Source of the DNA: Zasmidium citrigriseum
Lineage: Eukaryota > Ascomycota > Dothideomycetes > Mycosphaerellales > Mycosphaerellaceae
Reading direction: 5' to 3'
Length of the DNA: 64,000 bases
Assembly (NCBI GenBank): GCA_002786025.1
Contig: NHNW01000009.1
Coordinates: forward strand, 6,376 to 70,375
Shown one piece after another: positions 21,386 to 42,080 of the stretch. The position numbers were made by a program, and so were the translations under genes. The notes under the pieces are model-generated. The model ran no database searches. It worked only from the letters and a program-made list of their open reading frames with translations, and was not told where the DNA came from. How positions within the stretch are numbered: the stretch's first letter is position 1; every line of letters begins with the position of its first letter.

Positions 21386-21771
21386 TGTAAGGGAGCAATG
21401 GCTGGGTGAGTAGGCGAGCAATGGTATCGATTGAAGGATTGACTACGAACGTGAAAAAGGGAGTCTGCAACATGAACTTGCCAATGTAATACCAAAGCTA
21501 CGAGGAAGTAGCGACCTTCTCGGGACATAAACAAAGCCCCGGAGCATGTGACACAAGTGAATGACGATGGAAGCTGGGAGCTCGGGCCAACACCCCACGC
21601 GCCGAACCTAAAAACGCGTCTTCCCGACCTCAGCGCGTCTCAATCGCCGATTTCAACCGCCCAAACCACAAACATTGTTCGCATTGCCATTGTTCACCAA
21701 CGACGCGATGATTGCTACGACTGCCATGACATTGATACGGCCGACGCGATAGAATTCTTCCTTTGCACAGC
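21386..21771. promoter_or_regulatory. Divergent promoter (F-box-like gene / SLD3)
   Basis: A 386-base spacer between divergent start codons. It presumably holds both promoters. No specific element identified. Confidence 0.4.
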
Positions 21772-24348
21772 ATGTCTAAGAGGACGAGAGAGGAGAGCGA
21801 GACTGAGGGGAGGGATATTGATAGACGGCCTTTTAGTGTGAGGGTGAGTACTCCCTCAATCCAGAATGAGGAGAACATTTGGGGTGCTGATGGGAATCAG
21901 CACGACTCCTCCGACCCCTTCGCGAAACCCCGAATTTTCACGCCGATATGCCTCCTCCCGCGCTCGCGACTGCCTTTGGCGTTTTTGGATACCGCACACG
22001 ACGGTTCACGGATATTCACAGCAGACATTTTTGTTTTGGAGGGGGGAGATGAGGGGAATGTGTTGATTGTGGAGGAGGACCAGGAGGGGAGGAGTTTTGC
22101 TATTGAGAGGGTGTGCAGGAGGAGGTATGCGCTTTGTCGGTTGGTTGAGGGGGTTAGGAGGGAGGATTTGGTTGGGCGGAGTACGGGTGGGAGGGATGTG
22201 GTGGAGAGGAAGAGGAAGAGACGGGCTGTTGGTGGTGATGAGTGTGGGAAGCCTTGGTGGGTTGATGCTGCTGTCGATGTTGATGTGGAGGACGTGGAGG
22301 TGAAGAGGGATATGCCGAGGCTTTTGATGCTCAGGAAGCAGGATGCGAAATCATCGACAACTGCAAAACCGGCACAGACAGCGGCCAGCGATACCCAAAT
22401 ACTGGAGAATGCACCGGGCCTTCAGAACAAAGACCGCCTGGCTGCAGCACCAGCAACTTCGCAAGACCCTCTGGAAGAACTGGCGAGATCATATCTGGAT
22501 GCTCTATACCTCTCTCGGACCCCAATCGCGTACTTCGTCAAGGGCCCTTTGGCTCGTGCAAGAGCAGCATTTGCATCACAGCCGGCTGAACTGGTTGCGT
22601 TCTTGCGTCCAGCAATTCTATCAATAACCGTCGCGGACAAGAAGTACCGAGACAGCATCCCGGAATACATCAAGGATCTACCATTACTAGACACGCCAGA
22701 GAAATCAAAGCGTCAGAAGAAGCGCAAGTGGAAACCGACGAGAGACAAGTCTGGCTTCTTTGTCAGCGAGAAGGACTGTCTCGAACAATGGTGGAGAAGC
22801 GATAACGACCAGGGGACGGCCTTAGGTTCTGCAGAGAAACTGGACGATGCTATACGACGCAGATCACAGAGACTGCGAAGTCGGGAAACATTCCTCCAGG
22901 TCATTCTCATCTTGGAGACCTTAGCCCTGGAGGCCACTACTGCGAAATCCCACGGCGCAGCCACAACGACGGCTGAATCCCAGAACGTTGATTCGCAAGC
23001 CGAGGAAAGTCAGGCTATGGTTGGACAGAAGAAGACCAGAAGGAAGAAGGAAGTCGACGTTGCCGAAGTGCTGGACACATGGCTCGATCGACTCAATATG
23101 TGGTCTATGATCGACCCGACCTCACCCACGAAGACTGCGGACAAGGACGATTGCGACGACGAGTCCAACGATGAGCTGAAGAACTTCGCATGTGAGGTCG
23201 TCATACCATTCTTCTCTGCTCGAATTTCCGAGCAAGCGTACGCAGCTAGCAAGAAACTCGGTGGGCCAAAAGCACCACCCAAAACGAAGAGCAAGGTCTC
23301 TGTCCCTAGGAAGCCGGGAGAGCCAGCAGTACGACAGCCACCAACAAAGGAGCCAAGAAAGCCATTGGGGAGGGTGTCATCAGACACACTAAACCAAGCC
23401 GGCAAACGAGCTCCATCCCTTCATCGCGCGGCGACTGATTCGGATACTCTATCAAACATGATCAAGCGTGAGATGAGCGAGACCCCGCCGCTGGACAGTA
23501 TCCCGCTGTCAAGATCACGATCGCAATCAAAGACCCAACCGGGTGTAAAGAAACGGCCCAGCTTACTCGAGTCCCTCGTCAAACGGGAGGTGGACCTGAC
23601 GGCAATAGCGCAGGCCAACGAGGCGAAGCTGAAGAAGAAGTCGGAACTCGAAGAAAAAATGCGCGACGCTATCAACACGCTCAAGAAACCTAACAGGGCT
23701 CGAGCTGTGGAGGAGACCGCGAAGAATGCCGATGAAAGTTTCGCCCGTGCCATTGCGAAGGGAAAGTCGAATGGCCAGCGCAAGGCTTCTGATAAGAACG
23801 CTGTTGCCATCACGGCTACGCCTCGCCAGGTCCAGGCTACTCCTGCGCCTAAGAGGCATGTGTACCAAGGCCCTGGTCATACTTTTAGCTCGGGAGACGT
23901 CTCTATCGTTCCGGCTACGTCTGCGAGGCAACGAGCGCTACCTGACCAGATTCCAAGCAGCTCGTTTGCGGTTCCGCAGACGAATCATCGGCCGCGGAAT
24001 GGGAATGCGTTGATCGAGGAGACACCCTCGAGAGGATTTGCCAAGTTCATGCCGCCTGCATTGTCAAGAACGCCTGGAACATTGCTCGAATCACCGACAG
24101 CCACCCGCAAGTCGCAGATTCAGTCGACGCCTGCCAAAATCTCAAAGATGCCGTCTTTGATAGAGACGCCATTGGCGAAAGTGCCTGGGTCGACCTTGAA
24201 AGGGCGAACATACAGCCCCATCAAGAACCTTGGCGCTTCTTCCACGAAAGCTGACAGCCGAGAAGACTCTGGCCTTTGTCTGGACAACGATGCTGCGTTG
24301 TATAACGCCCTGGGATGGGACGATGACGAGTATGAAGAGCTCCCATAG
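21772..24348 (+). CDS. SLD3: DNA replication regulator Sld3
   Basis: 858 aa in one exon from the ATG at 21772. Sld3 binds Cdc45 and, after CDK phosphorylation, Dpb11, so loading Cdc45 on the MCM helicase at origins. The conserved Sld3 domain runs from about residue 230 to 560: DPLEELARSYLDALYLSRTP, a FVKGPLARARAAF block, DKKYRDSIPEYIKDLPLL, then the helical segment up to FACEVVIPFFSARISEQAY. The C-terminal third is disordered, basic and rich in Ser/Thr-Pro sites, as expected for the CDK-regulated region. It ends in an acidic tail with W-D-D-D-E-Y-E-E. Nuclear. Confidence 0.9.
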   Translation: MSKRTREESETEGRDIDRRPFSVRVSTPSIQNEENIWGADGNQHDSSDPFAKPRIFTPICLLPRSRLPLAFLDTAHDGSRIFTADIFVLEGGDEGNVLIVEEDQEGRSFAIERVCRRRYALCRLVEGVRREDLVGRSTGGRDVVERKRKRRAVGGDECGKPWWVDAAVDVDVEDVEVKRDMPRLLMLRKQDAKSSTTAKPAQTAASDTQILENAPGLQNKDRLAAAPATSQDPLEELARSYLDALYLSRTPIAYFVKGPLARARAAFASQPAELVAFLRPAILSITVADKKYRDSIPEYIKDLPLLDTPEKSKRQKKRKWKPTRDKSGFFVSEKDCLEQWWRSDNDQGTALGSAEKLDDAIRRRSQRLRSRETFLQVILILETLALEATTAKSHGAATTTAESQNVDSQAEESQAMVGQKKTRRKKEVDVAEVLDTWLDRLNMWSMIDPTSPTKTADKDDCDDESNDELKNFACEVVIPFFSARISEQAYAASKKLGGPKAPPKTKSKVSVPRKPGEPAVRQPPTKEPRKPLGRVSSDTLNQAGKRAPSLHRAATDSDTLSNMIKREMSETPPLDSIPLSRSRSQSKTQPGVKKRPSLLESLVKREVDLTAIAQANEAKLKKKSELEEKMRDAINTLKKPNRARAVEETAKNADESFARAIAKGKSNGQRKASDKNAVAITATPRQVQATPAPKRHVYQGPGHTFSSGDVSIVPATSARQRALPDQIPSSSFAVPQTNHRPRNGNALIEETPSRGFAKFMPPALSRTPGTLLESPTATRKSQIQSTPAKISKMPSLIETPLAKVPGSTLKGRTYSPIKNLGASSTKADSREDSGLCLDNDAALYNALGWDDDEYEELP

Positions 24349-24546: not shown

Positions 24547-25943
24547 ATGCGCTTGTCAGCTTCGTTCGCCACCATCCTTGCTACGTGGAACATAGCCGTA
24601 AGCGCTAGTAGCTATGATGAGACGCAGCAGGTCCTTGGGGTGGCGAAGCCTACCGACAGTGGAAATGAAGGTCTGAGGACTGTAGTAAGTCAAGAACATC
24701 TTTGTTATTACATATGGCTTTGCTTTTGACTAAGATCTAATAGCGTCTTCGACAAATCCAGCACCATGGCTCCCACCGCTATCCCAACCTCCACCGGGTC
24801 ATCGACATTGACAACATAACAACTACAATCGCCGGCTCAGGCCCCTTCCATATCCAAACCTCTGAGACACAGATCGAGCGTCTGGTGGATCAAAGCCCAT
24901 CAGACATCGACGCCCTACTCTCCAAAGCCACACCACCCACCTGGGAACTCGCCTCCCTCCCCGCCCCAAACATCACCAACAAAGAGACCATCCTGAGCTT
25001 CGCCCGCATGAGCGCCAACGCCTACTACGAGGGCTCCAACCAAACGGGCTGGAAATGGAAAGATATCAGTAAAGGGTACAATTATACTTCTGATTTTGGG
25101 TGGGAGGAGGATGGACTCAGGGGCCATGTTTTTGTTGATGAGGGGGAGGGGAGTGTGGTTGTTGCGTTGAAGGGGATGTATTTGAGAGGTTGAGACGGGA
25201 TGGGGTGGGTGCTGATGACGGTTATAGGCACGAGTGTCCCCTGGCTCGACGATCCGAGTACCACGCACCGGGACCTCCTGAACGACAACCTCTTCGCCTC
25301 CTGCTGTTGCGGCCAGAGCGGATCAATTTTCTGGAAACCTGTCTGTGACTGCGCCCTGCCCTCCAAAGACAAGTACAAGACCTGTAACTCCACATGCCTG
25401 GAATCTGAATTAAGAAATTCCTCACACTATTACTCCGCCGCGCGAAAAATTTTCGAGGATGTCCGAGAGCAATACCCACATAGCGACATCTGGCTCACAG
25501 GCCACTCTCTGGGAGGTGTGGTTGCGAGTTTGCTTGGGTGGACGTATGGCGCTCCGACTGTGAGTTTTGAGGCTTTTCCGGAGGCGCTCGCTGCAAGTCG
25601 AATAGGAATTTCTATGCCACCAGGCAGGCAAGGGCATGTTGTGCATTTTGGGAACACCGCCGATCCCATATACATGGCCTCTTGCAACGGCGCGCTTTCG
25701 CCTTGTAGTCTCTGGGGCTACGCTTTCGAGAGTCGGTGTCATACCGGAAAGAGGTGTGTTTATGATACGGTGGCGGATTTGGGGTGGTGGGTTGAGGTTC
25801 GGAATCATGGGATTGAGAGGGTTATTGAGGAGGTTATTGGGGTTTATGAGGGGGTTCCGGAGTGTGTGGATGTTGGGGAGTGTGTGGATTGTGAGGGGTG
25901 GAGGTTTGTCAACGGCAGTGAGAGTAAATTGTGGGAGGGGTAA
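24547..25943 (+). CDS. Atg15-like lipase
   Basis: Exons 24547-24684, 24744-25188 and 25228-25943 keep phase and give about 432 aa. Atg15 is a vacuolar phospholipase that degrades autophagic bodies. Matching features are an N-terminal hydrophobic segment (ATILATWNIAVSA), the QHHGSHRYPNLHR block, YYEGSNQTGWKWKDI, and the nucleophile elbow GHSLGG with Ser at about 288. The tail matches as well, with CNGALSPCSLWGYAFESRCH and YDTVADLGWWVEVRNHGIE. The second junction is uncertain. The best-phased intron is only 39 nt (25189-25227, donor GTTGAG) and leaves a few extra residues between ALKG and TSVPW, where relatives read straight through. Could be the true Atg15 or a secreted paralogue. Confidence 0.8.
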
Positions 25944-25983: not shown

Positions 25984-27930
25984 CTAGATGACATGTCCCT
26001 TCGTCTGGTGGATTTTCGAAACATCCAGATTCCGCCAGAGTAGCACGGCCACGATTCCTAGTGCCCAGACTGCTGTCGCTGCGATCAAGATGTCTCGTTG
26101 GGCATCGCCGTACGCTCTTTGAATCGCTAATCTCGTTGGCGAACCAACAGGATACGACAATTGTGTCGTGAGATCGCCGTAAATCGTCAAGAAATCAGGC
26201 TGCGCCTCGACTGGAAGGTACTCGAGCAGCTTCTTGGGAAACGTATTCTGCCAGATGGCGCTTGTGACGCTGAGGCCGATGGCGCCGCCGATGTTGCCGA
26301 AGAAACCCAAGGTTGCGAGCGCGACGGCGATGTATTGATGAGAGGCGACTGCGAGGATGGCGATTTCGTCGGCGACTGCATTCGATTAGACCGTGTTTTG
26401 CGATTGAGGGAATGAGTGACTTACTGATGATTATCCCAGCGCCAAAGGCAATAAAGATCTGGCACATAACAATATAGCCCACATCGCCATTAGGCTGACG
26501 GAAGTGCAGCATCAGCCCACAACCGAGAATACTGAGCGGAACACCAAAGTACAGCGCAGAGGGCTTGAAGCGTCCGGTGTAGTGGATCAGCGTCCCTGCG
26601 GCGAAACCCACAACGACAGACCCGACGCTGTACGTGTTGATGAGGTAACTCGCATTCGTCAGGCTGAGATCGTTGACGACTTGCAGGTACGAGCTGAAGT
26701 AGCTGAACCAGCAGAAATAGCTGAAGAAGAGCGTGGCGCTTAGCATACAAGCGCCGACGACGGTGCGGTCCAGGAGGAGGTTGTAGGGGATGAAAGTCAC
26801 CGGAGCGAAGAACTTCTCCCAGAGGACGAAGAGGACCAATAGAACCACGCCGAAAACCAGCAGGCAGATGATCAACGGAGATGCCCACCCTTTCGGTTGC
26901 AAGAGCCAGAGATTGAAGGGCAGCAGGAAAAGCGCGACGCCTGCGGTCAGGAGAAGGAGACCGATGATGTCGAATTCGCGGCCGTAGTAGACCAGAGATT
27001 GCCAGAGATTTCGACCGCTGGGGCGTGCGGGTACGACGTTTCGTTTCTTCGCTTTGAGGTAGTTCCATTGCATCAGGCCGAAGAGGGGGAGTGTGACGGC
27101 TGGGACTAGGATCGTGAACATGCCGAAGGCCCAGGGCCAGCCGGATCCGTTGAGGAAGGCTGTAGAGATGGGACCTGCGAGCCAGCACTTTTCACCATCA
27201 TCAGTCAGTCAAATTCCCAGTCAATCCCTATGAATGGATGAGATACTCACAGTAATCATGTTAGGGCTATACGCAAACGCCTGCATCAAGCCCCGATTCT
27301 TCAGCGAACTCGTATCCGCCACAAACACGCTCAGACTGTACTGCAACCCGGTATTTCCCACGGTGTAGAAAACCATGGCTGCGGCGTAGGCTTCGACTTC
27401 GCGGCAGGCGGCCATCATGATTAGGCCCATCACGGCGAGGATGATGCAGAAGAGGTAGCCTTGGGGGCGGCCGAAGACGTCGAGGATTTTGGCGATGGTG
27501 ACTGCGGGTTTGTTAGTGGAGGGTCTTGGACATAGGAGCGGGGGAGATGGTACAGTTCGTGCAGCCGCCAACTACTGTCGAGATTACGCTGACGGTGGGC
27601 GTGAGACTATGTTCCGCGAAGGCGGAGGTTACGAAGGGGAGGAGAGCGGCTTGGGTTCCTGCAATATACGTCTTTAGCCATGAAGCCCAATGCTTTTGAA
27701 ATGTGGTAGTTGAACTTACCTGACAGCAACCCTTCGACGAAGTATGTGAGCCATATCAGGATGTATGCGATTGCGAGAGCGCCTTTTCCCCAGACGACTG
27801 TGACGGCTTCGATGTTCTGTACTCCTGGCTGTGCTTCTTGCGACACCACGTCGCCTTGGGTGCTGTTGTTCCCGGAATGGACTTCCACGTCGTCGCTCAA
27901 GGGAGCTTTGTCGTGCTGTGACTCTGACAT
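25984..27930 (-). CDS. Siderophore-iron transporter-type MFS permease (SIT/ARN family)
   Basis: Exons 27930-27720, 27658-27554, 27501-27251, 27187-26425 and 26375-25984 join in phase to give 573 aa with about 14 membrane helices. The polar N-terminal tail precedes the first helix at WGKGALAIAYILIWLTYFVE. Family hallmarks are the AKILDVFGRPQGY loop, FYTVGNTGLQYSLSVFVADT with SLKNRGLMQ, and DEIAILAVASHQYIAVALA followed by IGGAIGLSVTSAIW. SIT permeases import ferric siderophores or related metal chelates across the plasma membrane by proton symport. It lies one gene away from the isocyanide/NRPS-like locus, so a link to metal-chelate uptake is possible. All introns are GT-AG. Confidence 0.9.
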
Positions 27931-28921
27931 GATTGGCGAAATCCAGCTCACAGTTCACGCCAGAGAAAGTACAAGACGATGTAGAAAGGAAAGAACCAGG
28001 CTGTCCCTGTCCACCAACGAACGAAGAAGAACAAGAAACCAGAAATATTATCACTTCCACAAGACCAACGTCCCAAACCGCCTCATCATCCGCACACAAT
28101 ATCGACAATCTAGACCTGCGGCACGGGTGTTTGGCGAGGAAGTCGTCCCTTTCGGCGAAAGCGGGACCGAGTGAGCAAGTTTGCGGGCATATGCTTCTTT
28201 CGCCTGCAGGAGAATTCCTGCAATGTCTCTGCTAGATGGAACTAGTGCACTTTACGATGCTACTATACAATCCTCTCGGCTACTTGGCTCTCAACCTACC
28301 ACTGGCGTTGTGCGCAAGTAAGCGTGGCGATACTACCACACTTGTGCGCTGAGGCTGATGTGAGCGGAGGGCTTGGAAACAGGGGTCGCGGTCCCCAACT
28401 GCTCGTATTAGGACTCCAGCGCGACGTATATATGCGTGTGGAGACTCATCAACAAGTGCAGAGAGTGGGCATCCTCGTATTGCTCGGTCAAACGAAACAT
28501 GTCGCTTCTACAGAGGCCCCAAATCCAAACCCATCCATCCGAGGTTGCACAGATCTCATCTCGATCGTGCAACATACGATCGACGGGCAGCTGCAGACGT
28601 TCGCAGCGACACCGTCAGGTCTACACGTGGCGGCCAAAGCACAAGCAATGGAAAAGAAATTTACTCTTATTCACTCAGACCCTGCAAGCCACAAGCGAGG
28701 GCCCTGCAGAGGGTCCTTGGTGCGAGGCTATGGATCGGCGCGGACATCTCGGTCCCTGATGTTGCCCCGTTTTGGAGAAGGTAGGGCAGTGGACGCTAGG
28801 GTGGCTGCTGGTTATCGGGGTACATACACGTGGAAGGTGGTGGTCGCACGCAACCGAAAGTTGGCTTCAAGATCGAGAGATAGGGTTTCTTGACTGGATT
28901 CCAAGTCTGCTGTTGACGAGG
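27931..28921. other. Intergenic, 1 kb
   Basis: Between the 5' end of the SIT transporter and the 3' end of the NRPS-like gene. Only short, mutually overlapping frames; no recognised gene. Confidence 0.4.
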
Positions 28922-31900
28922 CTAACTCCTATCCATGAGCTGTGCATACTCCATAAACTCCTCGTCCTTCTTCAACATCTCCAGCTCATCCGGCAGTGTC
29001 CCCAGCACGAGCTCGACACCTCCGTCCTTTCTCATGGGAAAGATGACCAGGAACCTGAAGCGTCTGCTGCCTCGGTCGATCTGTGGTCGTAAAGACTCAG
29101 GAGAGCCTCCGTTGGCGAATAATCCGTCTCCGAAATCGATCTCGCTGGGTTGGAAGAGGATCATGTTGGAGATCATGGCGTGCATCCCGTCGAGTCCCAT
29201 GTCTGCTATTGAGAAGTTGTTCGTGCTGACGTCTGGGAGGGCTTGGAGGAGTGAGAAAGCGTCGTGCACCAGAGAGGGAGTGATGCGGGAGGCTGCTTCG
29301 CGGAGGACTTTTGCCACGGTGCCGATGCTGGTGCGTGGGGAGCAGAGGGTTTCGACGTTCATGGTCGGTCGGTTGAGAATTAGCATGCTGCCCATATAGG
29401 TCGATGGGAGGAGTGATGAGAAATAGGGTCGGCCGTCGATGGGCAATTCTAGAATGGCGGTGTCGTCGGGGGCAATCTTCTCTCCTTGGATTTCTGTTGC
29501 GACTCGGTATCTGGCGCGGATGGCTACTCTCCAGAAGAAGGCTTGGACAATATCACTGATGGAGGTGATCCCCTTCGCCTCTGGGTCCGCTGTGACGTGG
29601 CGTTTGAGCTTTTGAATCTTCTCGGGGGTGATCAAGAACATGGTCGTTCGCAAGCATCGACCAGCTGGGTCGGGAAGAGGCGGCCAGATCGTTTTGTGAG
29701 GCCACACTGGTGGTGAGGGCAGAGTCTTTGCATGCTGTTGTTCGCCATTGACAGCGCCGTTGACTTGCGGTTTGTGCTGGAACCCTTCTGGTCGAAGGAA
29801 AGGCAAAAAGCCCCAGACACTAGGATCGACCTCCTCCGCCGGCTTTGTGTAGCCCTCAACTTCATGCAAGACTTCAGGTAGACTGTGGTTGAAGCTTTCA
29901 GGATCAAGCCAATCGCACGTCGCTGTCTGGTCTCCACTGACGAATTTGCAGCTCTCCGCCCAAGTCTTGAGAGCAATCATCACACCAACGCCGTCCAAGC
30001 AGCCGTGGTGGAAGTTGCTGGCGAGGATTACGCCCCCTTTGACGAAGTTTGCCTGAGCCACGAGGATATCTGCTGGATACGATGGGAAAGTCGGACATGG
30101 AAGGACAAGATCGTCTGGAACGGACGACGGAAGGAATCCAGTCTCTCGAAGTCTTTCAAACGAAGGAAGGTACTCGCTCAAGTCCTTGAACCGCAGCTGC
30201 CGGGGCGTGGGGAAGTGTCTCCCTGTCGCAGTCATTGGTGGCAAAGGAGGGATCGTGAGTCGAAGATCGCCTTTCCTGTATCCGATTTCTTGGTCGTCTT
30301 CAAACATCATCCGTCCGTCCAGAGCCGGGATGAGCTGCAATGCTCGTTTGAGACCAGCCTGCAGCTTTTCAAATGCGTCCTGGAAGCTGACACCTTCTTG
30401 CAGCGGGAAATACAGGTTGATGCCCATGTAGTGGTTCGGGTTGACATAGTCAAAGCTGTTCATCTTGAAGGACCTTCGAAGATTGTGTTGCCTCACGAGA
30501 TCGTGAACTTGATTTGGTGCGGCTTCCTTCGACTCTGCTTGTGCTTCCCTCATCTCCAGGTGCAATTGGTACAGAACAGCCGCAAATTTGGCGAGAGTCG
30601 GGTTTGCGTAGACATGCCGTGGGGCAAGTTTGTCTTGTAATCCTAGAGAAGCCCGGATGGTGTTCACGGCCTGGAAAACAAACAGTGAGTCCAGTCCGAG
30701 GTCGAAAAAGTCTGTATCTGGCGAAGCGTCGTAAATGGTGGGCAACGAGGCACCGAGTAGCTCACGAAGAGATTCCATAGTGGCATTTACAGAGCTGGTG
30801 TCGATCGAGACTGGCTCTGGCTCTTCCTCTCGGCTGCTATAGAATCGATCGATATAGTCGGTGTACAGCTTGAGGGTAGCCGCACGCTTCACAGTCCCTT
30901 TGTCGGTCTTGATGAATGGCTTGTCAGGCTCTGCAAAGGTCACGTAAGATCTGTGTAGCTGAGCCTTGTGGAGTGAGTTGGCCATGGCTTTCTCCACGGT
31001 CTCCCAAATGCTATCGAAGAGGTCATTGTCCCTGGCTGATGGGTCTTTCAATTCAATGAGCAGTCCGGCCTGACGCTTGCCGCTTCCAATCTGTACAGAT
31101 GTTAGGATCATTGGTCGCTAGCGGGTCGTAGGAGGCTTACCACCAAGCAGCTGTCGACAGCTGGATGAGTTGAAATAAATGCTTCCAACGAAAGCGGCGA
31201 GATCTTGTAACCATTGGACAAGACAACGACATCATCACTCCTGCCCTTGAAAGCCCACAAATCAGGCTTGGTAGGATGCTTGACGTAAAGATCCTTCAAG
31301 TTGACGGAATCTGTGTCCGGAAACGTCTGGAAAATGCCTTGGAATAGTTCCCAGTGCTCGTTGCGATGGACCCAGTGCTCGTACGTCCCAGGCTCGATCT
31401 CCTTGAATTCGAAGCCGGACCATGGGTGGAATGCAAACCAAAGGAAATCTTCTCGCTCGACCCAGAGGTTACCGATGAACAGGCCTTCAGTCGTTCCAGT
31501 CAAGTTGAGAATCCGGATGACATCGTTGACCTTGCGTGCAATGTCTGGACTGACTGGACCTGTTGACATGAACATCAGCAGCGTTCGCCATCATGGTAGG
31601 CAGTCACTCACCTCCTGATGCGCAGATGAACTTGGATCCGCATGTTCCGAACTTTGCAAGCACATCAGGAGTCTCTCCGAGCTCGTCCACGAGAGAGGGG
31701 ACCATACTCCAGATGTCGATTCCTGCGTGGTCAACAAGAGTTTCAATCAGGTTCATATTAGGTAGGATGTTAGGTGGACCAAGCACACAACGGAGATCGA
31801 AGAGAGACGGCATCATGATGTCCATGATGATTCCTTTCAGACAGTCAGCATCACGGTTTGCGGCTGTGTAATGTTGATGAATGTTGATGACATACCGGCA

Positions 31901-32779
31901 CCCTGGGCATCGTTAGCAGGATCGATCAAGCTTTGAGCAGGTATCTTCACTTACATGGCTCATTGGAAACGACGAGTAGATCGTATCGCCTTTACACCAG
32001 TCCGCGGTCCACGGTTTCATGCCTCCGTCGCCTTTCGTTGGAGGAAGCAGCCTCACAGCATCCATGGTGCCGACAAGAGCATGAGACCACCAGATAGGCT
32101 TCGGCACACCGGTAGTCCCAGAAGTATGCAGCATGCAGAATGGTTCTTGTGCAGCTTCGTCGAAAGTCTTTGTGAAGGGGAAAGGCTCCACTGATCCTGC
32201 ATCCAGGAGTTCATCGAGCAGAGGAAGCTGGATGACCTTCATCGGCCTTTGCTTCAAGACACCCTCCATCAATGGAAGGATCGATTTTTCGGACGGATTG
32301 ACCCAGACATCGCATTTTGCTGCTTTGAGTACCGCGAGTGCGCCTTCGATGTTGTTTTTGGGAGAGAGAAATAGTGCCTGGTGGGAAGTGAGTTCTCGAA
32401 CCTGATTTGATGATGGATGTGGGATGAAATACCGAACAATTGATCTTGTTCGCAGCATACGTCAACAAGATGTGCCTCAAATCATCTGCGAAGTATAGTC
32501 AATTCTTTGATCTTCAGAGTCTTTGCTTGTCAACGTACGAGGGCCAATGTATCCCAGAGGGCGAATTGCATCGCCGTTGCTGACCTGGGACTGCAGCCAC
32601 CACGCTGTCTTGTCGACTGCCTGAGCGAATTGCCTTGCTGTGATGTGCCGAAACTCTCTTTGGCCATCATTGAGCATGAGCAGCGAATACACGATGCGTT
32701 CTGGCTCGGTCCTTGCCACCTCGTCGAGTATCTGAGGAATGAGTCTACGCCCATATGCAGGCAGCTCGTCTCGAGCCAT
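28922..32779 (-). CDS. NRPS-like enzyme: adenylation-thiolation-BAHD-type acyltransferase
   Basis: Seven exons (32779-32539, 32485-32433, 32377-31955, 31902-31896, 31833-31612, 31559-31141, 31090-28922) join in phase to give 1,177 aa. The adenylation domain (about 1-530) shows MLHTSGTTGVPKP, a SFPMSHGAG segment, LTGTTEG, GRSDDVVVLSNGYKISP and an A10-like KTDKGTVKR. The thiolation domain has DTDFFDLGLDSL, with phosphopantetheine Ser about 590. The C-terminal 540 residues resemble BAHD/trichothecene-acetyltransferase proteins: catalytic HHGCLDG (HxxxD, about 817-821) and DFGDG in place of DFGWG (about 1107-1111). It would activate an acid, load it on the carrier and pass it to an acceptor. Divergent from the isocyanide synthase fusion. 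Exon 4 is only 7 nt. Confidence 0.9.
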
Positions 32780-33997
32780 GACGGACAACAACCTAGCAGC
32801 TTGTTTCGTGGTGTTAGTCCGTGGAGATGCTGTTTGTTGAGACAAAGCCTGAGATGCGGTCTTTGTATGGCAGAGACGTCCGACATTGCCAACCGTCCAG
32901 CTGGAAGCATTTCGGATGGATAGACTCAGCCCCAATGCAAGTACCCGACGTCACGTCCGTGGCATCGGAATCCATCGTGCTTGACTTGGACCGCCGATGT
33001 TGGCACAAGGGTCCTCATATATCGGGCATACCGGACAGGACTTGTGATCCTACGGTGCAAATTCCTTTGCGGGTTAAAGTTGGATGGTCAGCAAGGCGTG
33101 GAGCCGCAGACTGCTCGCGGCTGTGTGTCCGGCGGGCGCAAGTGCACATTCGTGTTAGCCTCATCTGCTGTGCGACCAGCAGTGGAAGATGGATCATGGC
33201 TGACCGCGCCAATACGAAGTGTAAGGCTGCCGGCATATGCCAAGCGGCCGCAGTTTTCGCACCGGTCTGCGTTCCGACTCTGGCACTTTAGCGACTATAC
33301 ATGGTGTTTCGAAGCGAAGGAGTCCTCGAGCGATCCTTCGACGCTGGGCGGGCTCGTTGTTTTTGCCGTGAACTGCTGGTGTGGCCTGGTGTGCGTCTGC
33401 GAAGATATGAGCAAGTTATAGGATCGGGCTAAAAGGGTAGCGCGGTTGCCGTCGACACAAGAGGCTATCCCCGTAGCATCTAGACCACGCTTGTGCTGGC
33501 CAGCCCAGAGCGGGACTCAATAGCGCATTTCGCACGCATCCGCTGCGTGTAGACCCTGCGCGTTCAGCGTTCGCAGATGTGCAAGTGGGAGGGTGTCATC
33601 ATGTGCAGCGATGTGCAGCGCGGCTTACGCTGGCCCCTGAAACTCTATTCTGGCTGCACGCTTCCGACTCCTTCGCTCGCCATCGCCCGTGGCCGTTCAT
33701 CGGATACACAACTCGCAACACGAACGGGCGACTTTGGCAAGCTCCGCAGCTCGACCAAGCGATGGCTGAACTTGTGCTTGTCAGCTAAGGCCGGCACCGC
33801 CAAGGTCGCCGTGATCCTACTGGCGGCGAAATGGCATTCGATAAAAGGCAAGTAAGGTTCAGAGGCCAGTGGCTTTTCCATTCCTAAGCCTCGCCATCAA
33901 CTGGACGTACCCGTAGAGACGTCAAGTCCACAGTCCTCAGTCTCTCGTTTCGTCCAATTCCCAACCCCCGCCTGCTTGCACTCCCTCAGCCAGGACG
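32780..33997. promoter_or_regulatory. Shared divergent promoter of the NRPS-like and isocyanide synthase-ABC genes
   Basis: 1,218 bases between the two start codons, with no credible gene inside. Candidate elements seen are a perfect tandem repeat of a 10-mer (33601-33620), a third ATGTGCA at 33577-33583, and TGAGCAAG at 33408-33415, whose reverse complement CTTGCTCA resembles fungal Mac1 copper-response elements. These are motif resemblances only. The arrangement suggests co-regulation of both genes. Confidence 0.55.
33601..33620 (+). repeat. Perfect 10-bp tandem duplication in the divergent promoter
   Basis: ATGTGCAGCG occurs twice back to back. The ATGTGCA core also occurs 18 bases upstream of the first copy. 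It could be a regulator binding site, but no factor can be named. Confidence 0.6.
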
Positions 33998-36900
33998 ATG
34001 ATCCCGGCAGCAGCCTCACCTGAGGCCACCGACATTGAGGAAATCTCCTCCAAGGTCCTCGACATTATCTTGGAGTTACAATTACAAAAGAATGTGGAAG
34101 ACTTCGACGAGAGCACGGTGGAGAAGCTGGCTCTAGGAAGACCCAAGTTTCTCGCTGTCATCTCCAAATTCGTTGCAGCAGGTACACGGATAGAGATGTG
34201 CTTGCCCGCCTTTCCATTCAAGTCTGCAAATCAGGTGTGCAAGATCCTGAAGGGCCTCGTTCGAGCACTAGCTAAACTCGACAGGTCTACAAAGTTCTGG
34301 GCACTCTACCTGACAAAGCTGAGGAGCTGGCCCTGGAGCGTCTCGACTCAATGTGCATTCGCATCGGGGAGATCTACTCACCAGGTGCAACTCTGACCAT
34401 CATCTCGGATGGCCTGGTCTACAACGATCTCCTCAGTGTATCAGATCGGGACACCTGGGCATATGGCGAAGCTCTACGCAAAATGGCGTCCCGGAAAAAG
34501 TTTGATCACATTGGATTCTCCAGACTTCGGGATCTGGTCAAGTTCCCAGGGCCTGACAATCTCAACGAAATCACCTACGTGGCCAGCGCGACCAACTTTC
34601 GACGACACCTCCTGAACGAGTTCGGCAAAGATGACCTGGACATTGACCACGAAATCTCGACGCAACCAGACACCATGCTTACGTATCTCGGCTATCGAAG
34701 ATTCCTTGTCTCCGACCTGAAGTACATATTCCCCCTGTCGGAAGACCGATCAAAGACCAACTACAAGAAGAACGTGAAGTACCTCGCCAAGCAGATGCTG
34801 ATGCGAGGATACGTGAGTCTCGCCAAAACCTTCTCTGGTTCAAAGACTAACCCATTTTGTGCCAGGCATTTGCAGGTGCTGTCAAGTCAGCTTACCCAAA
34901 CCACCTCCGTCTCTCTATCCATCAGTCAACCGGCGAGCACAAGATATCACTTAGCCTCCTCAATACCAAAACCGGCTTCACAACTCCTTGGCATTGTTGT
35001 GTCGCACAGACGGCCAGCGGAGAATGGCTAAGTGCACCAAAGGGTGACTTTGAATCTCAGCTCAAATTCAAGGTCATCTTCGAGGACGGCAGACCGAGTT
35101 ACTTCAAGGAGACGGACACACTATCAAGTAGCGAGCAGAAAGATATCGTTGCAGAGGTCCAAGAGGTTGGCGAAAGCTCTCCCGAGATCATCGACAGGAA
35201 CCAGCTGCTCCAAGGTCGGGGTCCTCGAAACAGATCCTCCACAAACACCAATGGACCTAAAGCTGCGAATGGGTACGTTCCATCATCGTTGAGTGCAAGC
35301 ACAACGGACGTACAGAACGAGAAGGGAGAGCCAGTTAACCCCTTTCTGAACTCAGGCCATCCGCTCATGGACCCCAAGTCGGAGAGTTTCAGCGCAAGGG
35401 CATGGCTCCAGTCCCTGATGGACATGATCAAAGGCAATCCTGAACTTTATCCTCAACGGGTGGCAGGTGTCGCATACAGCGATCTATCTGTCCATGCGTT
35501 TGGATCACCGACTGACTATCAACGAAACTTCTTCAATTCGGCGCTGACATTGGTTGACTGGACCAAGAGGCTGTTCGGGGTACAGCAGCAGCTGAGAATC
35601 AACATTCTTAAGGGGTTTGAGGGACTTGTGAAAAGCGGGGAGATGCTGGTGGTTCTCGGACGACCTGGAAGGCAAGATACAATCAGTGGCACATGATCAA
35701 GGATAGATGCTGACGGGCACCAGTGGTTGCTCGACGTTCCTCAAGACAATCTCAGGAGAGCTAGACGGGTTGAACTTGACTTCAGATTCGTATATAAATT
35801 ATCAGGGCGTTTCAAGAGAAGTTATGCACAAGGAGTTTAGGGGCGATTGCATCTACCAAGCTGAAGTCGATGTGCATTTTCCTCAGTTGACCGTCGGTCA
35901 GACACTGTCGTTCGCGGCTGCTGCTAGAGTAAGCTACAATACCCTCGTATGGACTTTTCGCTGTTGCTGATATGTTTAGGCTCCTCGAAACCGGCCTGGC
36001 GTGGATCGAGAAGTGAGTGATTGAGGAGGTAATCTCATGCGGTCCGCTGACTTCAATTTCAGACGTATACACAACATCTTCGGGACGTGGTCATGGCGGT
36101 ATTCGGGCTCAGTCACACGGTTAACACCATGGTTCGTAACCTCCCACTCGCCTTTGGATGATTGGGCTAATGAGACGATAGGTCGGAAATGACTTTGTCC
36201 GAGGAGTGTCAGGTAGGATCTAGGATGCAAGCCCCCATGTGCTTGCTGCCACTTACCAACGAATTCGAACAGGAGGAGAAAGGAAACGAGTCAGCATCGC
36301 CGAAGTGTCTATATCAGGAGCCCCGCTCCAGTGTTGGGACAACAGTACAAGAGGCTTAGACAGGTAAGTCGCTGGAGAGAGTTGCCTCGATCGCACGCTG
36401 ATCTCATGCAGTGCCACCGCATTGAACTTCGCCCAAACACTCCGAACTTCAACGGAACTCACAGGCTCAACTGCTCTTGTCTCACTCTATCAAGCCTCGC
36501 AGTCCATCTATGATGTAAGACATATGCCCATTATCATCGCACGTTTCATCGCTGATGACAGAAGGTCTTCGACAAAGTGGCTGTCTTGTACGAGGGCAGA
36601 CAAATCTTCTTTGGTCCTACGCAAGCAGCCAAGGAGTACTTCACCAAGTTGGGCTTTCAATGTCTTCCGCGCCAAACGACTGCAGACTTTCTGACTTCCA
36701 TCACCAACCCGGCTGAGCGACGAGTGTCAGAAGCCTTCAAAGGCAAGACGCCAAATACCCCTGACGACTTTGTAGCTGTCTGGCTGCAAAGTGCCGATCG
36801 AAGCAGACTGCTAGAAGAGATTGAAGAGTTCAAAGTCCAGCATCCCATCGGCGGCCCATTGCTTGACGATTTCAGACGTGCGAAACGGGTGTCTCAAGCG

Positions 36901-39900
36901 AAGACTCAGTAAGGTTGAGGATGATTATCACGATGAACTGCATTGACTGTTTACAGACGCCAAAACTCGCCGTACACCATCTCCCTCCCGATGCAGGTCA
37001 GACTCTGCCTCAAACGAGGCTTTTGGAGACTACAAGGCGACATGGCTACTCTGATCACCAGCGTCATCTTCAATGCAGTAATGGCCCTCGTCATTGGCAG
37101 TGTGTTTTACAACTTGCCCGACGATACCGGTCACTTGTACAGCAGAGGGGCGCTCTTGTTCTTCGCTATTCTGCTCGCAGCCTTCTCAAGTGCTCTGGAG
37201 GTACCCTTCCATCTGAGATACCTTTCAATGGTACAAGATACTGACACGCCCAGATTTTGGCTCTGTATGCCCAACGTCCGATCGTGGAGAAACATGCGAG
37301 ATATGCGTTCTATCATCCATTCGCCGAATCAATTGGTATGTTTTCGGGCTCTACATCACCGACTGATACTGACTCTGCGAAGCATCTATGCTGTGTGACC
37401 TTCCGAACAAAGTGTTTACGACCATTGGCTTCGACCTTGCTCTCTACTTCATGACGAATCTGCGACGGACTCCAGGCCACTTCTTTGTATTCCTGCTCTT
37501 CACGTTTACGTGCACGTTGACGATGAGCATGTACTTCAGATCGATTGCTGCTCTGTCCAAAACACTAGCTCAGGTGAGTACATATTAGACCTCGATCGGT
37601 TACAGTGCTGACAAGCAAAGGCCATGGCACCGGCATCTGTCTTCAGTCTCGCCCTGGTCATCTACACGGGCTTCGCCATTCCAACAAAGTACATGCGACC
37701 CTGGTTCCGATGGCTGAACTACTTGAACCCTGTGGGCTACGCCTTCGAAGCACTTATGATCAACGAGTTCCACGACCGGACTATTCCATGTTCGACATAC
37801 GTGCCTTCTGGTGGTGGTTACGAGAACTTAACTCCGGTAGAAAGGATCTGTTCCACGACTGGAGCTTCTACTGGGGCCAACTTTGTCGATGGCGATACGT
37901 ACCTGGCTGTCAACTTCAATTACCATGCGAGTCATCTTTGGCGGTATGTGTTTTATTCCAATCGAGTAGGAAGACGGTCTGAATTTGTTACAGTAACTTC
38001 GGTATCATGATCGCCTTGATGATCTTCGGCTGCGCCATCTATTTGCTCGCAAGCGAGTACGTCGTGGAAGAGAAATCCAAAGGAGAGGTATGCGACTTTC
38101 CGTACTCCGACATGCCAGTCACTAACACAATTTGCATTTTAAAGGTCCTGGTGTTCCAACGCAAGACGCAGAAGATGCTCCGGCAACTCTCGGACGAGGA
38201 AACTCACAGCGATAGCAAGATCGACGCAAGCATTCTGGCTTCCGAGAAGGATCGGCCTAGTAGCTACACTGGCATACAAAAGCAGACCGCCGTGGTGCAT
38301 TGGGACAATGTCCGTTATGATATCAAGATCAAGAAGGAAGAGCGACGACTGTTGGACAGCGTCGATGGTTGGGTTCGTCCGGGGACAATGACTTGCTTGA
38401 TGGTACCACCAATGCCTCTCCATTCAAGACGAAGTCATACTGACGCATGTCTGCAGGGAGTGACGGGAGCCGGCAAGACAACCCTCCTCGACGTCCTGGC
38501 AAGCCGTGCCACTTTGGGCGTCGTCAGTGGCGACATCATGATCGATGGTAGACCTCGAGATCCCGGATTCCAACGACGAACCGGATATGCCCAGCAGCAA
38601 GACCTCCATCTACCAACGACGACAGTTCGAGAGGCTTTGACTTTCAGCGCTGTTCTGAGACAGCCGCGACATATTCCGTACGCTGAAAAGGTCGCCTATG
38701 TTGACGAGGTTATCAGTATTCTGGAGATGGAGGCCTATGCTGAGGCTGTGGTTGGTGTGCCGGGAGAAGGTTTGTCAGACCAATGAATGACTGTGATATC
38801 AGAATGCTTACAACGAGAAAGGTCTCAATGTCGAGCAGCGAAAGAGACTCACTATAGGTGTTGAGCTTGCTGCTCGGCCTGCTTTGTTGTTGTTCCTCGA
38901 TGAGCCAACCTCCGGTAAGCCATGTCAAAGAACCTATGACACCTTTTGCTAACGATATCCTCAGGCCTCGACAGTCAGACCGCATGGTCGATCGTTACCC
39001 TTCTTCGAAAGTTGGCGGACAACGGACAAGCCATTCTGTGCACACTGCACCAGCCATCTGCCCCTCTGTTCCAAACGTTTGATCGACTGCTGTACCTTGC
39101 CATGGGGTGAGTACAGTAACTTGCTTTCAGATAAGCATATACTAATCACTACATCCTATCTTAGGGGCAAGACTGTATACTTTGGAGACATCGGCGCATC
39201 ATCCAGGACAGTCATCGACTACTTCGAGAAGAACGGAGCACGCACCTGCGGCCCTGAAGAGAACCCGGCTGAGTACATTCTCGAAGTGGTTGACAAGACC
39301 GTAAATGCTGGTCTAGAGATCAAGATGGATTGGCCTGAGGTCTGGGCTACATCAAACGAGCGGCAGGCTGTCAAAGCCGAACTCGCCCACATGAAATCGA
39401 CTCTATCGGAGAAACCGGCACCAGTGACAGATGCGACGACAATGCTACCATTTGCTGCCTCTTTGAGTACTCAGCTATGGCACGTGCTCAGTCGCGGGTT
39501 CACGCAATACTGGAGAACGCCATCGTATCTCTACTCAAAGATTGCACTTTGCCTCCTCAGTGTAAGTATCTACCGTTTTTGACACCCATGATGAACCAAG
39601 ATACTGATTGCAATGCAGGCGCTCTTCATCGGCTTCTCCTTCTGGAAAACACCCAATACCCTCCAAGGCCTCCAAAACCAAATGTTCGCCATCTTCCTCC
39701 TGCTGACAATCTTCTCGAACTTCTGCAATCAAATCATGCCACACCATATCACTCGGCGTGCCCTCTACGAGGCTCGCGAACGACCCTCGAAGACATTCTC
39801 ATGGCAAATATTCATAATCTCGGACATCATCGTCGAGATTCCTTGGAATACGCTCATGGCCGTTTTGATCTTTGTCAGCTGGTACTATCCCATTGGACTC

Positions 39901-40562
39901 CAACGGAATGCAGAAGTAGCAGGTCAAGTCGCCGAGAGAGGAGGGCTGATGTTCTTGTACATCTTCCTGTTCATGAACTTCGCGGGAACATTCACGACGA
40001 TGATGCTATCGGCCTTGGGCGGCGCTGAAGCAGCGGGCAACATTGGGAATTTGTTCTTCTCGTTGTCGTTAATCTTCTGCGGGTGAGTCTCCCAGGCCAC
40101 TACTCCTGTTGGCATTCACTGACATATTCTCGCAGTGTTCTCGCCACGCCTCAAGCCCTCCCAGGCTTCTGGATCTTCATGTACCGGGTCTCGCCATTCA
40201 CATACATCGTCTCCGGAATCCTCTCGACCGGTCTCGCCAACTCGTACATTACTTGCTCTGACGACGAACTCCTGCGGTTTCAACCCCCAGCAAACACAAC
40301 TTGCTCGAGGTACATGGACACCTACATCGATACGCACGGCGGATATCTCACCCCAGAGAGCATGGAATCTATGAGCGAGTGTGTCTTCTGCACCGGTGAA
40401 GATACGAATACGTTCTTGGCGAGTATTAGTTCGAATTATGATGATCGTTGGAGGAACTTTGGCATTGTGTGGGTGTATGTTGTGTTCAATATCGTTGCGG
40501 CGATAGGATTGTACTGGCTTGTGAGGGTACCGAAGGGGAGGAAAGTGAAAGTGGAGAAGTGA
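33998..40562 (+). CDS. Isocyanide synthase (DIT1/PvcA) fused to PDR-type ABC-G transporter
   Basis: Twenty-two exons keep phase from the ATG at 33998 to the stop at 40562, giving 1,824 aa. Residues about 1-335 match the DIT1/PvcA isocyanide synthase family: [50 protein letters not shown], then FSRLRDLV and [12 protein letters not shown]. Family enzymes convert an amino-acid amine to an isonitrile. After a polar linker (about 336-410) a complete PDR transporter follows. It has the N-terminal HPLMDP and [20 protein letters not shown] blocks and NBD1 with GRPGSGCST, VSGGERKR and GLDS. TMD1 comes next, then NBD2 with [17 protein letters not shown] and [13 protein letters not shown], and TMD2. Exon 3 (34866-35671) alone spans synthase end, linker and transporter start without a stop. 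Its donor is GC (35672), in the first Walker A codons. Confidence 0.9.
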
Positions 40563-40961
40563 TTGAGGAAGGGAGTAGGTGACGAAGAAAATGAATTTCG
40601 TGGATAGAACTTGTATCCAACTGAAACCATGGTATTGTAAATAAGGTGCCATTGTGGTACCAGTGATCTAGCTATACCTCCTAGGCCGTTCTCTGGCAGG
40701 CATGTGATTGCCAAGGCGGCATGTGGATCGGGCCATGCTGTGATTATGTAAATGCTGACAAAATCCCAGTCGCGCTAGGAAGTCGCACCTACCATCTTGA
40801 ACGTCCAACACATTCACTGCCCACTTTCACATGCCAGGCATTGCCGTCCGGACTTGTCAATACTGCCACCGCCCGGACCACTGCCGTTGGAGGAATACTG
40901 TGGCAAAACAGTGATGCTAATAAACAATTCGCAGTGAAGAAGCCGTCCCTACACGCCCACG
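40563..40961. other. Intergenic; cluster boundary
   Basis: About 400 bases separating the transporter fusion from the housekeeping TEX1-like gene. It presumably holds a 3' UTR and a promoter. Nothing else recognised. Confidence 0.4.
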
Positions 40962-42080
40962 ATGGCACCTCCACCTCGCCCACGACCTTTGCGAAAGGAC
41001 CACACCTCTGCGGCCTTCAAGAGCAAGCCTGTCCTCTTCTCCGAGACGTTCAAAGCCTCAACGCTTGTTCCAAATATCAAGAGCGTAACATGGTCGCCCA
41101 CCGGGTCCATGGTCGCGCACAGCACCGGCATCAACATTCGCGCGTGGAATCCTGATCGGCCCGACGTTAAGAATTCTACGGAGCTGAGGGAGAACCTGAG
41201 CAAGAATGGAGCACATGGCAGTGTCATCGAGAGGTTACAATTCAATCCGAGAAGCGAAGGCTTGTTGGCAAGCACAGCTGCAGATGGACTGGTCAAGCTC
41301 TGGGATGTGAGATTGCCTGGCGCGGCAACGGGCATCGTAGCTGGAGGGCCGGCAGCTGGAAAGATAGGCGGTTTTACACCAAAGGCCGCGGAGCATACCA
41401 TCGGTGACAAGGGCCTCTTCTTGACCTGGCATCCCAATGGGACGGAGCTCCTCGCGGGAAGGCACGATGATGTCGTGACTGCTCTCGATATACGGCGGTC
41501 CAACGTCGCCATCTTCGATACAACCACCGCATCCAACACCAATCGCTACGACGTCGAAGCCACTGACCGAACCCCAGTTAAGGACAAAGGCAACTTCAAC
41601 CAGATGACATTCTCCAACACCGGCCGAGAAGTCTTCGCCACGACCGCCGAAGGCCCTGTCAAAATCCTGGACTACCCCTCCATGACTGTCATTCACACTC
41701 TCTACGCCCACAGCACCAGCACATACTCTGTGAAAATGTCTCCCACCGGTAATTACGTCGCAATCGGCGGCTCCGACAGCCTCATCACGCTTTGGGATAC
41801 TACGAGCTGGATGGCTACCCACGTCCTCACGAACCACACTTGTGCCGTCAAGGATTTGAGTTTCAGCTTCGACGGAAACTATCTCGTGGCGGGCAGCGGT
41901 ACAGAGGGACAGAGGGAGGGTGACAAGGGACTGCACATCTACCATGTGGATACTGGGGAGATGGTGCACACTGTCGAGACTTCGAATGCGCCGAGGGATG
42001 TTGCATGGCATCCTTTACGGTATGCGGTTGCGTATTCTGGGGATCCGGGTGGATTGAAGTTGGCGGGGTCGATGACTTGA
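40962..42080 (+). CDS. THO complex subunit Tex1/THOC3-like WD40 protein
   Basis: 372 aa in a single exon. WD40 repeats are visible throughout: IKSVTWSPTGSMVAHST, GLVKLWDVRLPG, GLFLTWHPNG, NQMTFSNTGREVFATTAEG, YSVKMSPTGNYVAIGGSDSL, ITLWDTTSW, DLSFSFDGNYLVAGSG and a final DVAWHPLRYAVAY. Length and order fit the seven-bladed propeller of Tex1/THOC3, a component of the THO/TREX complex that couples transcription to mRNA export. Nuclear housekeeping gene; it marks the right border of the metabolite locus. Confidence 0.87.
   Translation: MAPPPRPRPLRKDHTSAAFKSKPVLFSETFKASTLVPNIKSVTWSPTGSMVAHSTGINIRAWNPDRPDVKNSTELRENLSKNGAHGSVIERLQFNPRSEGLLASTAADGLVKLWDVRLPGAATGIVAGGPAAGKIGGFTPKAAEHTIGDKGLFLTWHPNGTELLAGRHDDVVTALDIRRSNVAIFDTTTASNTNRYDVEATDRTPVKDKGNFNQMTFSNTGREVFATTAEGPVKILDYPSMTVIHTLYAHSTSTYSVKMSPTGNYVAIGGSDSLITLWDTTSWMATHVLTNHTCAVKDLSFSFDGNYLVAGSGTEGQREGDKGLHIYHVDTGEMVHTVETSNAPRDVAWHPLRYAVAYSGDPGGLKLAGSMT

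What the first reader, a model, noticed from the sequence alone, without database searches (positions are those of the whole stretch)
33998..40562. Isocyanide synthase fused in frame to a full-size PDR-type ABC transporter
Seen directly: 22 exons preserve phase across 5,475 coding bases. Exon 3 runs unbroken from the end of a DIT1/PvcA-type domain through a polar linker into the conserved N-terminus of a PDR transporter and up to its first Walker A motif. There is no stop or promoter-like gap between them. Known fungal isocyanide synthases stand alone or are fused to oxygenase or NRPS-like parts. I know of no described synthase-transporter fusion, though I cannot check. It would place isonitrile formation at the membrane, coupled to export of a reactive, metal-binding product.
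Basis: partly seen in the sequence, partly recalled or inferred. Interest (0 to 1): 0.95.

Follow-up and report, generated by a model that had tools for sequence, protein, structure and literature searches.

The report
Isocyanide synthase fused to drug pump
One fungal gene encodes an isocyanide-making enzyme joined to a full-size membrane pump; similar joined genes occur in five classes of fungi but are sometimes cut in two by gene finders, and here the gene sits beside the remaining parts of a known copper-linked isocyanide pathway.

Summary
Window 33,998-40,562 (+) is one 22-exon gene, 5,475 coding bases, 1,824 aa: a DIT1/PvcA isocyanide synthase (ICS), a ~65-aa linker and a complete PDR (ABC-G) transporter. 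It is no local accident: 16 of 117 homologue clusters have ICS plus ABC domains in one protein, and two shorter fusions came from another search; five ascomycete classes were checked. All 19 fused transporter halves fall in one clade (100*), and ICS and PDR distances correlate (16 fusions, r=0.885, 0 of 5,000 permutations). The intron in the first Walker A is GC-AG; six database models break off exactly there, so the fusion is under-annotated. Other ICS models carry eroded transporter remnants. Beyond the finding: the divergent neighbour (28,922-32,779, -) is the A-T-transferase part of CrmA as a separate gene, followed by an MFS gene related to the MFS module fused to CrmA elsewhere. This looks like a crm-type cluster whose ICS is joined to a PDR pump instead of the NRPS-like part. 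Most likely it makes and exports a CrmA-type isocyanide; substrate and export are inferred. Transporter domains on CrmA homologues were noted before (Won 2022), so this is a new variant. No transcript was available.

The parts
33998..40562 (+). ICS-PDR fusion gene, 22 exons, CDS 5,475 nt with stop, 1,824 aa
   Evidence: gene model; Pfam; homologues with the same domains
33998..35105 (+). isocyanide synthase part (PF05141 at aa 55-322): exons 1, 2 and the first part of 3
   Evidence: relatives in PDB: PvcA 3e59 E 1.8e-31, isonitrile synthases 9dhm and 9dh4
35106..35300 (+). interdomain linker, about aa 336-400
   Evidence: open only in the coding frame; median identity 0.20 among 16 fusions against 0.72 and 0.70 for ICS and transporter; pLDDT about 25-31 in most of the linker of relative P0319, in a low-confidence model
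35301..40562 (+). full-size PDR/CDR ABC-G transporter (ABC_trans_N, NBD1, TMD1, PDR_CDR, NBD2, TMD2)
   Evidence: Cdr1 and Pdr5 align over nearly the whole half, E 0; Walker, signature and H-loop motifs
35672..35723 (+). intron 3, GC-AG, splits the first Walker A
   Evidence: six database models leave the transporter sequence at this point, after GRPGR
28922..32779 (-). stand-alone NRPS-like gene: AMP-binding, AMP-binding_C_3, PP-binding, BAHD-type transferase; 7 exons, 1,177 aa
   Evidence: tblastn with four CrmA-type proteins, sequence, model, Pfam
25990..27951 (-). MFS transporter gene, relative of the MFS domain fused to some CrmA homologues (bounds and exons approximate, from alignments)
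   Evidence: tblastn with the C-terminal parts of P0019, P0023, P0051, P0106; Pfam TRI12 just over cut-off on one open frame
32780..33997 (.). 1.2-kb divergent intergenic region between the two start codons
   Evidence: models; one TGCTCA core, 0.70 expected by density

Best explanation
The gene makes one polypeptide in which a CrmA-type isocyanide synthase is tethered by a linker to the cytosolic N-terminus of a PDR pump. With the divergently transcribed NRPS-like protein (adenylation, carrier, acyltransferase) and an MFS carrier it forms a crm-type cluster. Shown by sequence: the fused reading frame, intact ICS and PDR motifs, the wide occurrence of the architecture, and the neighbouring CrmA parts. 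Inferred: the ICS turns valine (or a similar amino acid) into the isocyanide, the NRPS-like protein activates or esterifies it, and the pump exports the reactive, metal-binding product at its site of synthesis, giving self-protection and delivery.
For: Gene and frame. Same domains in 16 of 117 clusters plus two shorter fusion models, P0275 and P0319. All 19 transporter halves fall in one 28-row clade of the 78-row tree at 100*. ICS and PDR distances correlate, r=0.885, 0 of 5,000 permutations as high, 16 fusions. 9 of 24 parsed linkers contain no Met, so no separate start there. Six of the 120 listed ICS-only models leave the transporter sequence at the GC-AG point. Neighbour: CrmA minus its ICS; in the C-terminal block 62% identical to Lojkania P0009 and 57% to A. 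fumigatus P0070. Published: CrmA makes valine isocyanide (PMC9381783, abstract and passages). The ICS is 63-70% identical to P0070 and P0009 and 49-51% to the two ICS-TauD hits. In Glarea the fusion model runs on into a DJ-1/PfpI domain; its best structure hit is a ThiJ-family protein (3mgk, E 1.3e-35), next isonitrile hydratase InhA (E 4e-19).
Against: No transcript, protein, metabolite or localisation data. Several relatives have the ICS alone, or a transporter of the same clade alone, so coupling is not essential everywhere. The ICS tree does not make the fusions one clade; the AU test rejects it. The MFS carrier in the same cluster could be the exporter. The copper-response core in the divergent region is no commoner than chance. 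In A. fumigatus none of the other crm cluster genes is needed for CrmA products (PMC9381783, section 13).
Confidence: 0.6

Rival explanations
1. Two adjacent genes read as one: the ICS ends in the linker through an alternative splice or early polyadenylation and the transporter starts from its own promoter.
For: Some relatives are annotated as two proteins: in Exophiala aquamarina ICS P0217 and transporter P0254 lie on contigs of the same stated length (128,113 bases) and meet inside the linker. The window linker has one in-frame Met, aa 423, at 35,367-35,369 by count from aa 401.
Against: No stop in the coding frame through the linker, while the other frames have 2 and 3. Met 423 stands where the 23 other parsed rows have Leu (the parsing motif allowed only Leu or Met), and starting there would remove PDR N-terminal residues kept in solo transporters. 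9 of 24 parsed linkers have no Met. Six split models are explained by the GC-AG intron.
Confidence: 0.1
2. The fusion is real but the pump is an importer or recycler: it takes back a metal-isocyanide complex, or the ICS domain acts as a sensor.
For: CrmA products are made under copper starvation (PMC9381783, abstract); some PDR proteins such as Pdr11 take up sterols (PMC7822014, start of abstract in the listing).
Against: The nearest solo relatives carry names such as AtrD and CDR4 (efflux role recalled) and the best structural relatives are the drug-efflux pumps Cdr1 and Pdr5.
Confidence: 0.12
3. Tethering serves co-regulation and equal dosage only; synthase and pump work independently and the joint is neutral.
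For: The linker is fast-evolving (median identity 0.20) and the fused state appears lost in several lineages.
Against: The joint is found in five classes. Four Plenodomus-type ICS proteins keep two transporter-derived hydrophobic segments at 0.71 identity against 0.57 for their linker, which hints that a membrane anchor itself is kept.
Confidence: 0.18

Closest known systems
CrmA, ICS-NRPS-like enzyme of Aspergillus fumigatus (P0070; Lim 2018 PMC5974471, Won 2022 PMC9381783)
   Same: same kind of ICS; the window holds all CrmA modules (ICS; adenylation, thiolation, transferase) within 11.7 kb
   Different: in CrmA these are one protein; here the NRPS-like part is a separate divergent gene and the ICS is fused to a PDR transporter
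CrmA homologues with an added transporter domain, mainly in Dothideomycetes (noted in Won 2022; P0019, P0023, P0051 and P0106 carry an MFS domain)
   Same: isocyanide synthase and transporter in one polypeptide
   Different: in those four an MFS carrier comes with the ICS-NRPS protein; here the MFS is a separate gene and a PDR ABC pump directly follows the ICS. Won 2022 does not say in the sections read which transporter type it means
ICS-PDR proteins already in databases, e.g. Zasmidium cellare M409DRAFT_63711 (P0001), Glarea, Zymoseptoria, Fusarium langsethiae
   Same: same domain order; P0001 is 70% identical over the ICS end and 77% over the transporter end
   Different: source names are hypothetical protein, ABC transporter and the like; I found no paper that describes the architecture in ten searches (most papers listed were not opened)
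Cdr1/Pdr5-type PDR transporters
   Same: nearly the whole transporter half aligns; degenerate first and canonical second ATP-site motifs
   Different: an ICS domain lies in front of the PDR N-terminus
ICS-TauD proteins (XanB type); one is the second ICS of this genome (L007)
   Same: PF05141 synthase
   Different: dioxygenase partner; used as outgroup

Membership tests
DIT1/PvcA isocyanide synthase | PF05141 domain over its whole length | tested here: met
   aa 55-322, profile 1-269 of 273, E 7.9e-101
DIT1/PvcA isocyanide synthase | homology along the domain to solved isonitrile synthases | tested here: met
   PvcA 3e59 E 1.8e-31; 9dhm and 9dh4 E 2e-28 to 3e-28, with LPAFPxKSxN, SDGxV, RLSIH and TPWH shared in the alignments
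DIT1/PvcA isocyanide synthase | makes an isocyanide from an amino acid | not testable with these tools
   needs enzyme assay
PDR/CDR (ABC-G full-size) transporter | (NBD-TMD)x2 with ABC_trans_N and PDR_CDR | tested here: met
   alignment with Cdr1 and Pdr5 over nearly the whole half
PDR/CDR (ABC-G full-size) transporter | asymmetric ATP sites: degenerate first Walker A, canonical second | tested here: met
   GRPGSGCST at aa 520, GVTGAGKTT at 1214, VSGGERKR at 635, [11 protein letters not shown] at 1319 (that this asymmetry marks PDR proteins is recalled)
PDR/CDR (ABC-G full-size) transporter | ATP-driven transport | not testable with these tools
   needs assay
CrmA ICS-NRPS-like enzyme | ICS, adenylation, thiolation and transferase in one polypeptide | tested here: not met
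   the last three are a separate divergent gene, 28,922-32,779 (-)
crm-type isocyanide gene cluster | all CrmA modules in one cluster | tested here: met
crm-type isocyanide gene cluster | copper-starvation control (Mac1 sites) | tested here: inconclusive
   one TGCTCA core in the divergent region, 0.70 expected by density (motif from passages of PMC11563359)
crm-type isocyanide gene cluster | product derived from valine | not testable with these tools
   needs assay or metabolite analysis
CrmA with fused transporter domain (Won 2022) | transporter domain on the ICS-NRPS-like protein | tested here: not met
   the MFS is a separate gene; the fused transporter is a PDR on the ICS alone

The most novel reading that the evidence does not exclude
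The ICS-PDR fusion arose once, early in Pezizomycotina, as a make-and-export unit, and the ICS later changed partners: CrmA-type ICS-NRPS proteins and many single-domain ICSs descend from fused ancestors, some still carrying transporter stumps, and in the Plenodomus group the stump survives as a membrane anchor. Isocyanide synthesis of this kind would then be ancestrally a membrane-bound process, and, fused or not, this PDR clade would be the exporter of CrmA-type isocyanides.
Probability: 0.3. Interest if true: 0.8.

Novelty: new variant of a known kind. Interest (0 to 1): 0.62.

Why it matters
In the passages and sections I read no exporter of CrmA-type isocyanides is named. A synthase physically joined to one PDR clade names a candidate and gives a direct test. 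It also points to an architecture that a survey did not list: 4,341 fungal ICS genes, all sorted into three kinds (PMC10153163, passages and section 18), while a GC-AG intron breaks at least six annotated models of this gene. The cluster shows CrmA taken apart into separate genes, useful for assigning functions to its modules.

Tried and rejected
Annotation merge of two genes: rejected as main reading because the joint recurs in five classes, lies inside one exon here, and is open only in the coding frame. Single clade of all ABC-bearing ICS domains: tested and rejected (47 of 103 rows, log-likelihood 206 lower, p-AU 8e-74; intact fusions only, 25 of 103, 229 lower, p-AU 1.5e-6; quick tree), so one unbroken fused lineage does not hold for the ICS half; repeated loss or repeated joining both remain possible. 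One of the 47, P0131, was put there as a Fusarium near-copy although its own tail had no match. Copper control: one core site against 0.70 expected, not evidence. Alpha/beta-hydrolase partner: the gene at about 25,194-25,943 reads as an Atg15-like vacuolar lipase (my reading, recalled; Pfam gives Lipase_3), so it was not counted in the cluster. Structure of the joint: AlphaFold2 on relative P0319 with a 22-row alignment gave mean pLDDT 55; most of the ICS is at 60-94, the stretch 355-428 is below 50, and no statement on ICS-NBD packing is possible. Codon-position GC did not separate the linker from non-coding sequence and was not used. A first tree of NRPS-like parts had rows that still held their ICS; it was redone on the window protein's columns, and the window protein's place there is not firmly supported, so it does not tell whether the separate gene is older or younger than CrmA. 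The first splice optimiser missed introns and the GC donor and was replaced by reading each intron. Blast of ICS tails used a five-sequence database and no shuffled control; its weakest matches (E 7e-4 to 1e-3) should not be leaned on singly. The rows of the trees were chosen by me from the listed hits. Papers opened without use: passages of PMC11719821, PMC4859500, PMC12542154, PMC2848647.

Full report
What is there. The gene at 33,998-40,562 (+) was rebuilt from the sequence: 22 exons, 21 introns of 47-60 bases. Pfam finds DIT1_PvcA at aa 55-322 (E 7.9e-101), ABC_trans_N, two ABC_tran, two ABC2_membrane and PDR_CDR, each over its cut-off (on the 1,825-aa first version). Exon 3, 34,866-35,671, carries the end of the synthase, the linker and the transporter N-terminus up to Walker A. 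The linker has no stop in frame; the other frames have 2 and 3. Intron 3 is GC-AG. Both halves look intact: the synthase aligns with PvcA (3e59) and two other isonitrile synthase sequences over most of its length, and the transporter aligns with Cdr1 and Pdr5 from near its start to near its end, with PDR-type ATP-site motifs.

It is a family. A search with residues 1-420 of the fusion returned 117 protein clusters (7,989 candidates scored). Sixteen of 117 carry PF05141 together with ABC_trans_N, ABC_tran and ABC2_membrane (15 also PDR_CDR; 115 member sequences by the table; two, P0013 and P0105, are short models of 1,371 and 1,429 aa); 99 of the other 101 have NRPS-like domains and two have a TauD domain. 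A transporter-half search added two shorter fusion models, P0275 and P0319, among the 120 listed of 7,532. Taxonomy look-ups of five of the named organisms gave Dothideomycetes, Leotiomycetes, Eurotiomycetes, Sordariomycetes and Lecanoromycetes. In a tree of 78 transporter sequences chosen from the hits (19 fused, 59 solo) all 19 fused halves lie in one clade of 28 rows with 100* support; the other 9 are annotated as stand-alone. That tree is a quick one with SH-aLRT support only and warns of two long rows, P0008 and P0016. Two of the nine solos are nested among fusions with starred support (P0245 and P0254). Distances of the two halves among 16 fusions (P0105, P0275 and P0319 left out as short) correlate with r=0.885, reached in 0 of 5,000 permutations. 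The linker evolves fast (median identity 0.20 against 0.72 for the ICS and 0.70 for the transporter) and contains no Met in 9 of 24 parsed cases (25 were given; P0155 was not parsed).

Why it was overlooked. A search with the ICS alone gave 453 clusters, 120 listed. In 118 of the 120 the end of the ICS could be located; 43 have a tail of at least 40 aa and 27 of the 43 tails match the transporter half, 16 do not. Six of the 27 leave the transporter sequence after GRPGR, exactly at the GC-AG donor: P0122, P0146 and P0224 end there, P0143 runs on 4 residues, P0127 and P0155 run on 21 residues of other sequence. Three stop a little earlier, inside ABC_trans_N (P0128, P0137, P0227). Three fusion models (P0003, P0020, P0105) skip to the same acceptor...GCST, and the solo P0238 reads GRPGRQSSGCST, which fits a non-canonical intron there that gene finders handle badly. 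I infer that part of the single-domain ICS count in surveys is this fusion. Nickles 2023 states that all ICS enzymes in its set matched one of three architectures (PMC10153163, section 18).

Erosion. Of the 27 matching tails, 13 are Fusarium models with a degenerate ABC_trans_N stump (one genus, near-copies, best seen as one event), four are Plenodomus-type models (three named, one unnamed) with a piece of the first membrane domain, and one (Oidiodendron) has a piece of the transporter C-terminus. The Plenodomus-type stump has two hydrophobic stretches (best 19-residue windows 1.87-2.42 and 1.29-1.41) and is better conserved (0.71) than the linker before it (0.57; ICS 0.89). These are annotated proteins; I could not see their DNA. 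In Exophiala aquamarina an ICS (P0217) and a transporter of the clade (P0254) are on contigs of the same stated length, 128,113 bases, and by eye their ends match the two parts of the linker of P0004. In Amniculicola a CrmA-type protein (P0017) and a solo transporter of the clade (P0258) share a contig length of 504,244.

Evidence against a simple history. The ICS tree (103 rows chosen from the hits, quick, rooted on two TauD rows) spreads the fusions among CrmA-type and single-domain proteins, with 45 of 100 inner branches unsupported. Holding the 47 rows counted as ABC-bearing, or the 25 intact fusions, together is rejected. With the single transporter clade this fits one old fusion with repeated loss and change of partner, or repeated joining of two genes that travel together; I cannot decide between them.

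The neighbourhood. On the other strand, 28,922-32,779, lies a 7-exon gene for 1,177 aa with AMP-binding, AMP-binding_C_3, PP-binding and a BAHD-type transferase. It matches CrmA-type proteins after their ICS: the C-terminal block is 62% identical to Lojkania P0009 and 57% to A. fumigatus P0070, the N-terminal block 49-50%, and it has the motifs TSGTTG, LGLDSL and HGCLDG. Downstream of it, 25,990-27,951 (-), is an MFS gene whose relatives include the MFS part of P0019, P0023 and P0051 (55-60% over the main block; P0106 42%). Outside lie genes that read as housekeeping: SLD3 at 21,736-24,345, a lipase read here as Atg15-like, and a THOC3-like WD40 protein at 40,938-42,077 (the THOC3 profile is under its cut-off, WD40 is over). 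So the window has CrmA in pieces, with the ICS joined to a PDR pump. The genome search found one other ICS, an ICS-TauD gene by reading its open frames, and ten other PDR matches, the nearest 50% identical.

Mechanism. CrmA of A. fumigatus makes valine isocyanide, which ends up in fumivalines and mannitol esters (PMC9381783, abstract, passages and sections 6 and 13). By descent the fused ICS most likely makes the same or a similar isocyanide, the separate NRPS-like protein does what that part does in CrmA, and the PDR pump removes a reactive product where it arises. Only the parts list is shown; substrate, product, membrane and direction of transport are inferred.

Against what is known. Won 2022 already notes CrmA homologues with an added transporter domain, mainly in Dothideomycetes, and suggests that it may contribute to the pathway (sections 6, 13). 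By the domains the ones I see are MFS domains, 4 of 117. The ICS-PDR architecture itself I did not find in ten searches of the held library (listings, most papers not opened), in passages of Lim 2018, or by term search in a survey of fungal ABC transporters (PMC2848647); subscription papers and supplementary files were not searched. Hence: new variant of a known kind.

Noticed in passing
window 28,922-32,779 (-): Stand-alone A-T-transferase NRPS-like gene equal to CrmA without its ICS, divergent from the fusion.
   Followed up: yes
window 25,990-27,951 (-): MFS gene related to the MFS domain that other fungi fuse to CrmA.
   Followed up: partly
window 35,672-35,723: GC-AG intron inside the first Walker A; probable cause of split gene models in relatives.
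   Followed up: yes
L007 (G000:C116:352,500-362,400), ICS at C116:357,061-357,978 (-): The genome's second ICS lies in open frames that read as an ordinary ICS-TauD gene.
   Followed up: partly
database proteins P0145, P0150, P0156, P0159: ICS proteins with a short C-terminal stump of the PDR first membrane domain, two hydrophobic stretches, better conserved than the linker.
   Followed up: partly
database proteins P0132, P0133, P0152 and other Fusarium models; P0138 Oidiodendron: ICS proteins with degenerate transporter remnants at the C-terminus.
   Followed up: partly
database protein P0007 (Glarea lozoyensis), C-terminal ~250 aa: Fusion model runs on into a DJ-1/PfpI domain (best structure hit a ThiJ-family protein, next isonitrile hydratase InhA): a neighbour gene merged in annotation or a triple fusion.
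   Followed up: partly
database protein P0108 (Paramyrothecium): ICS-TauD protein with an MFS domain, another synthase-transporter combination.
   Followed up: no
G000 C58:851,866, C135:100,053, C136:14,954: Three PDR loci with identical score and open frame length (1,627 codons), which look like recent duplicates.
   Followed up: no
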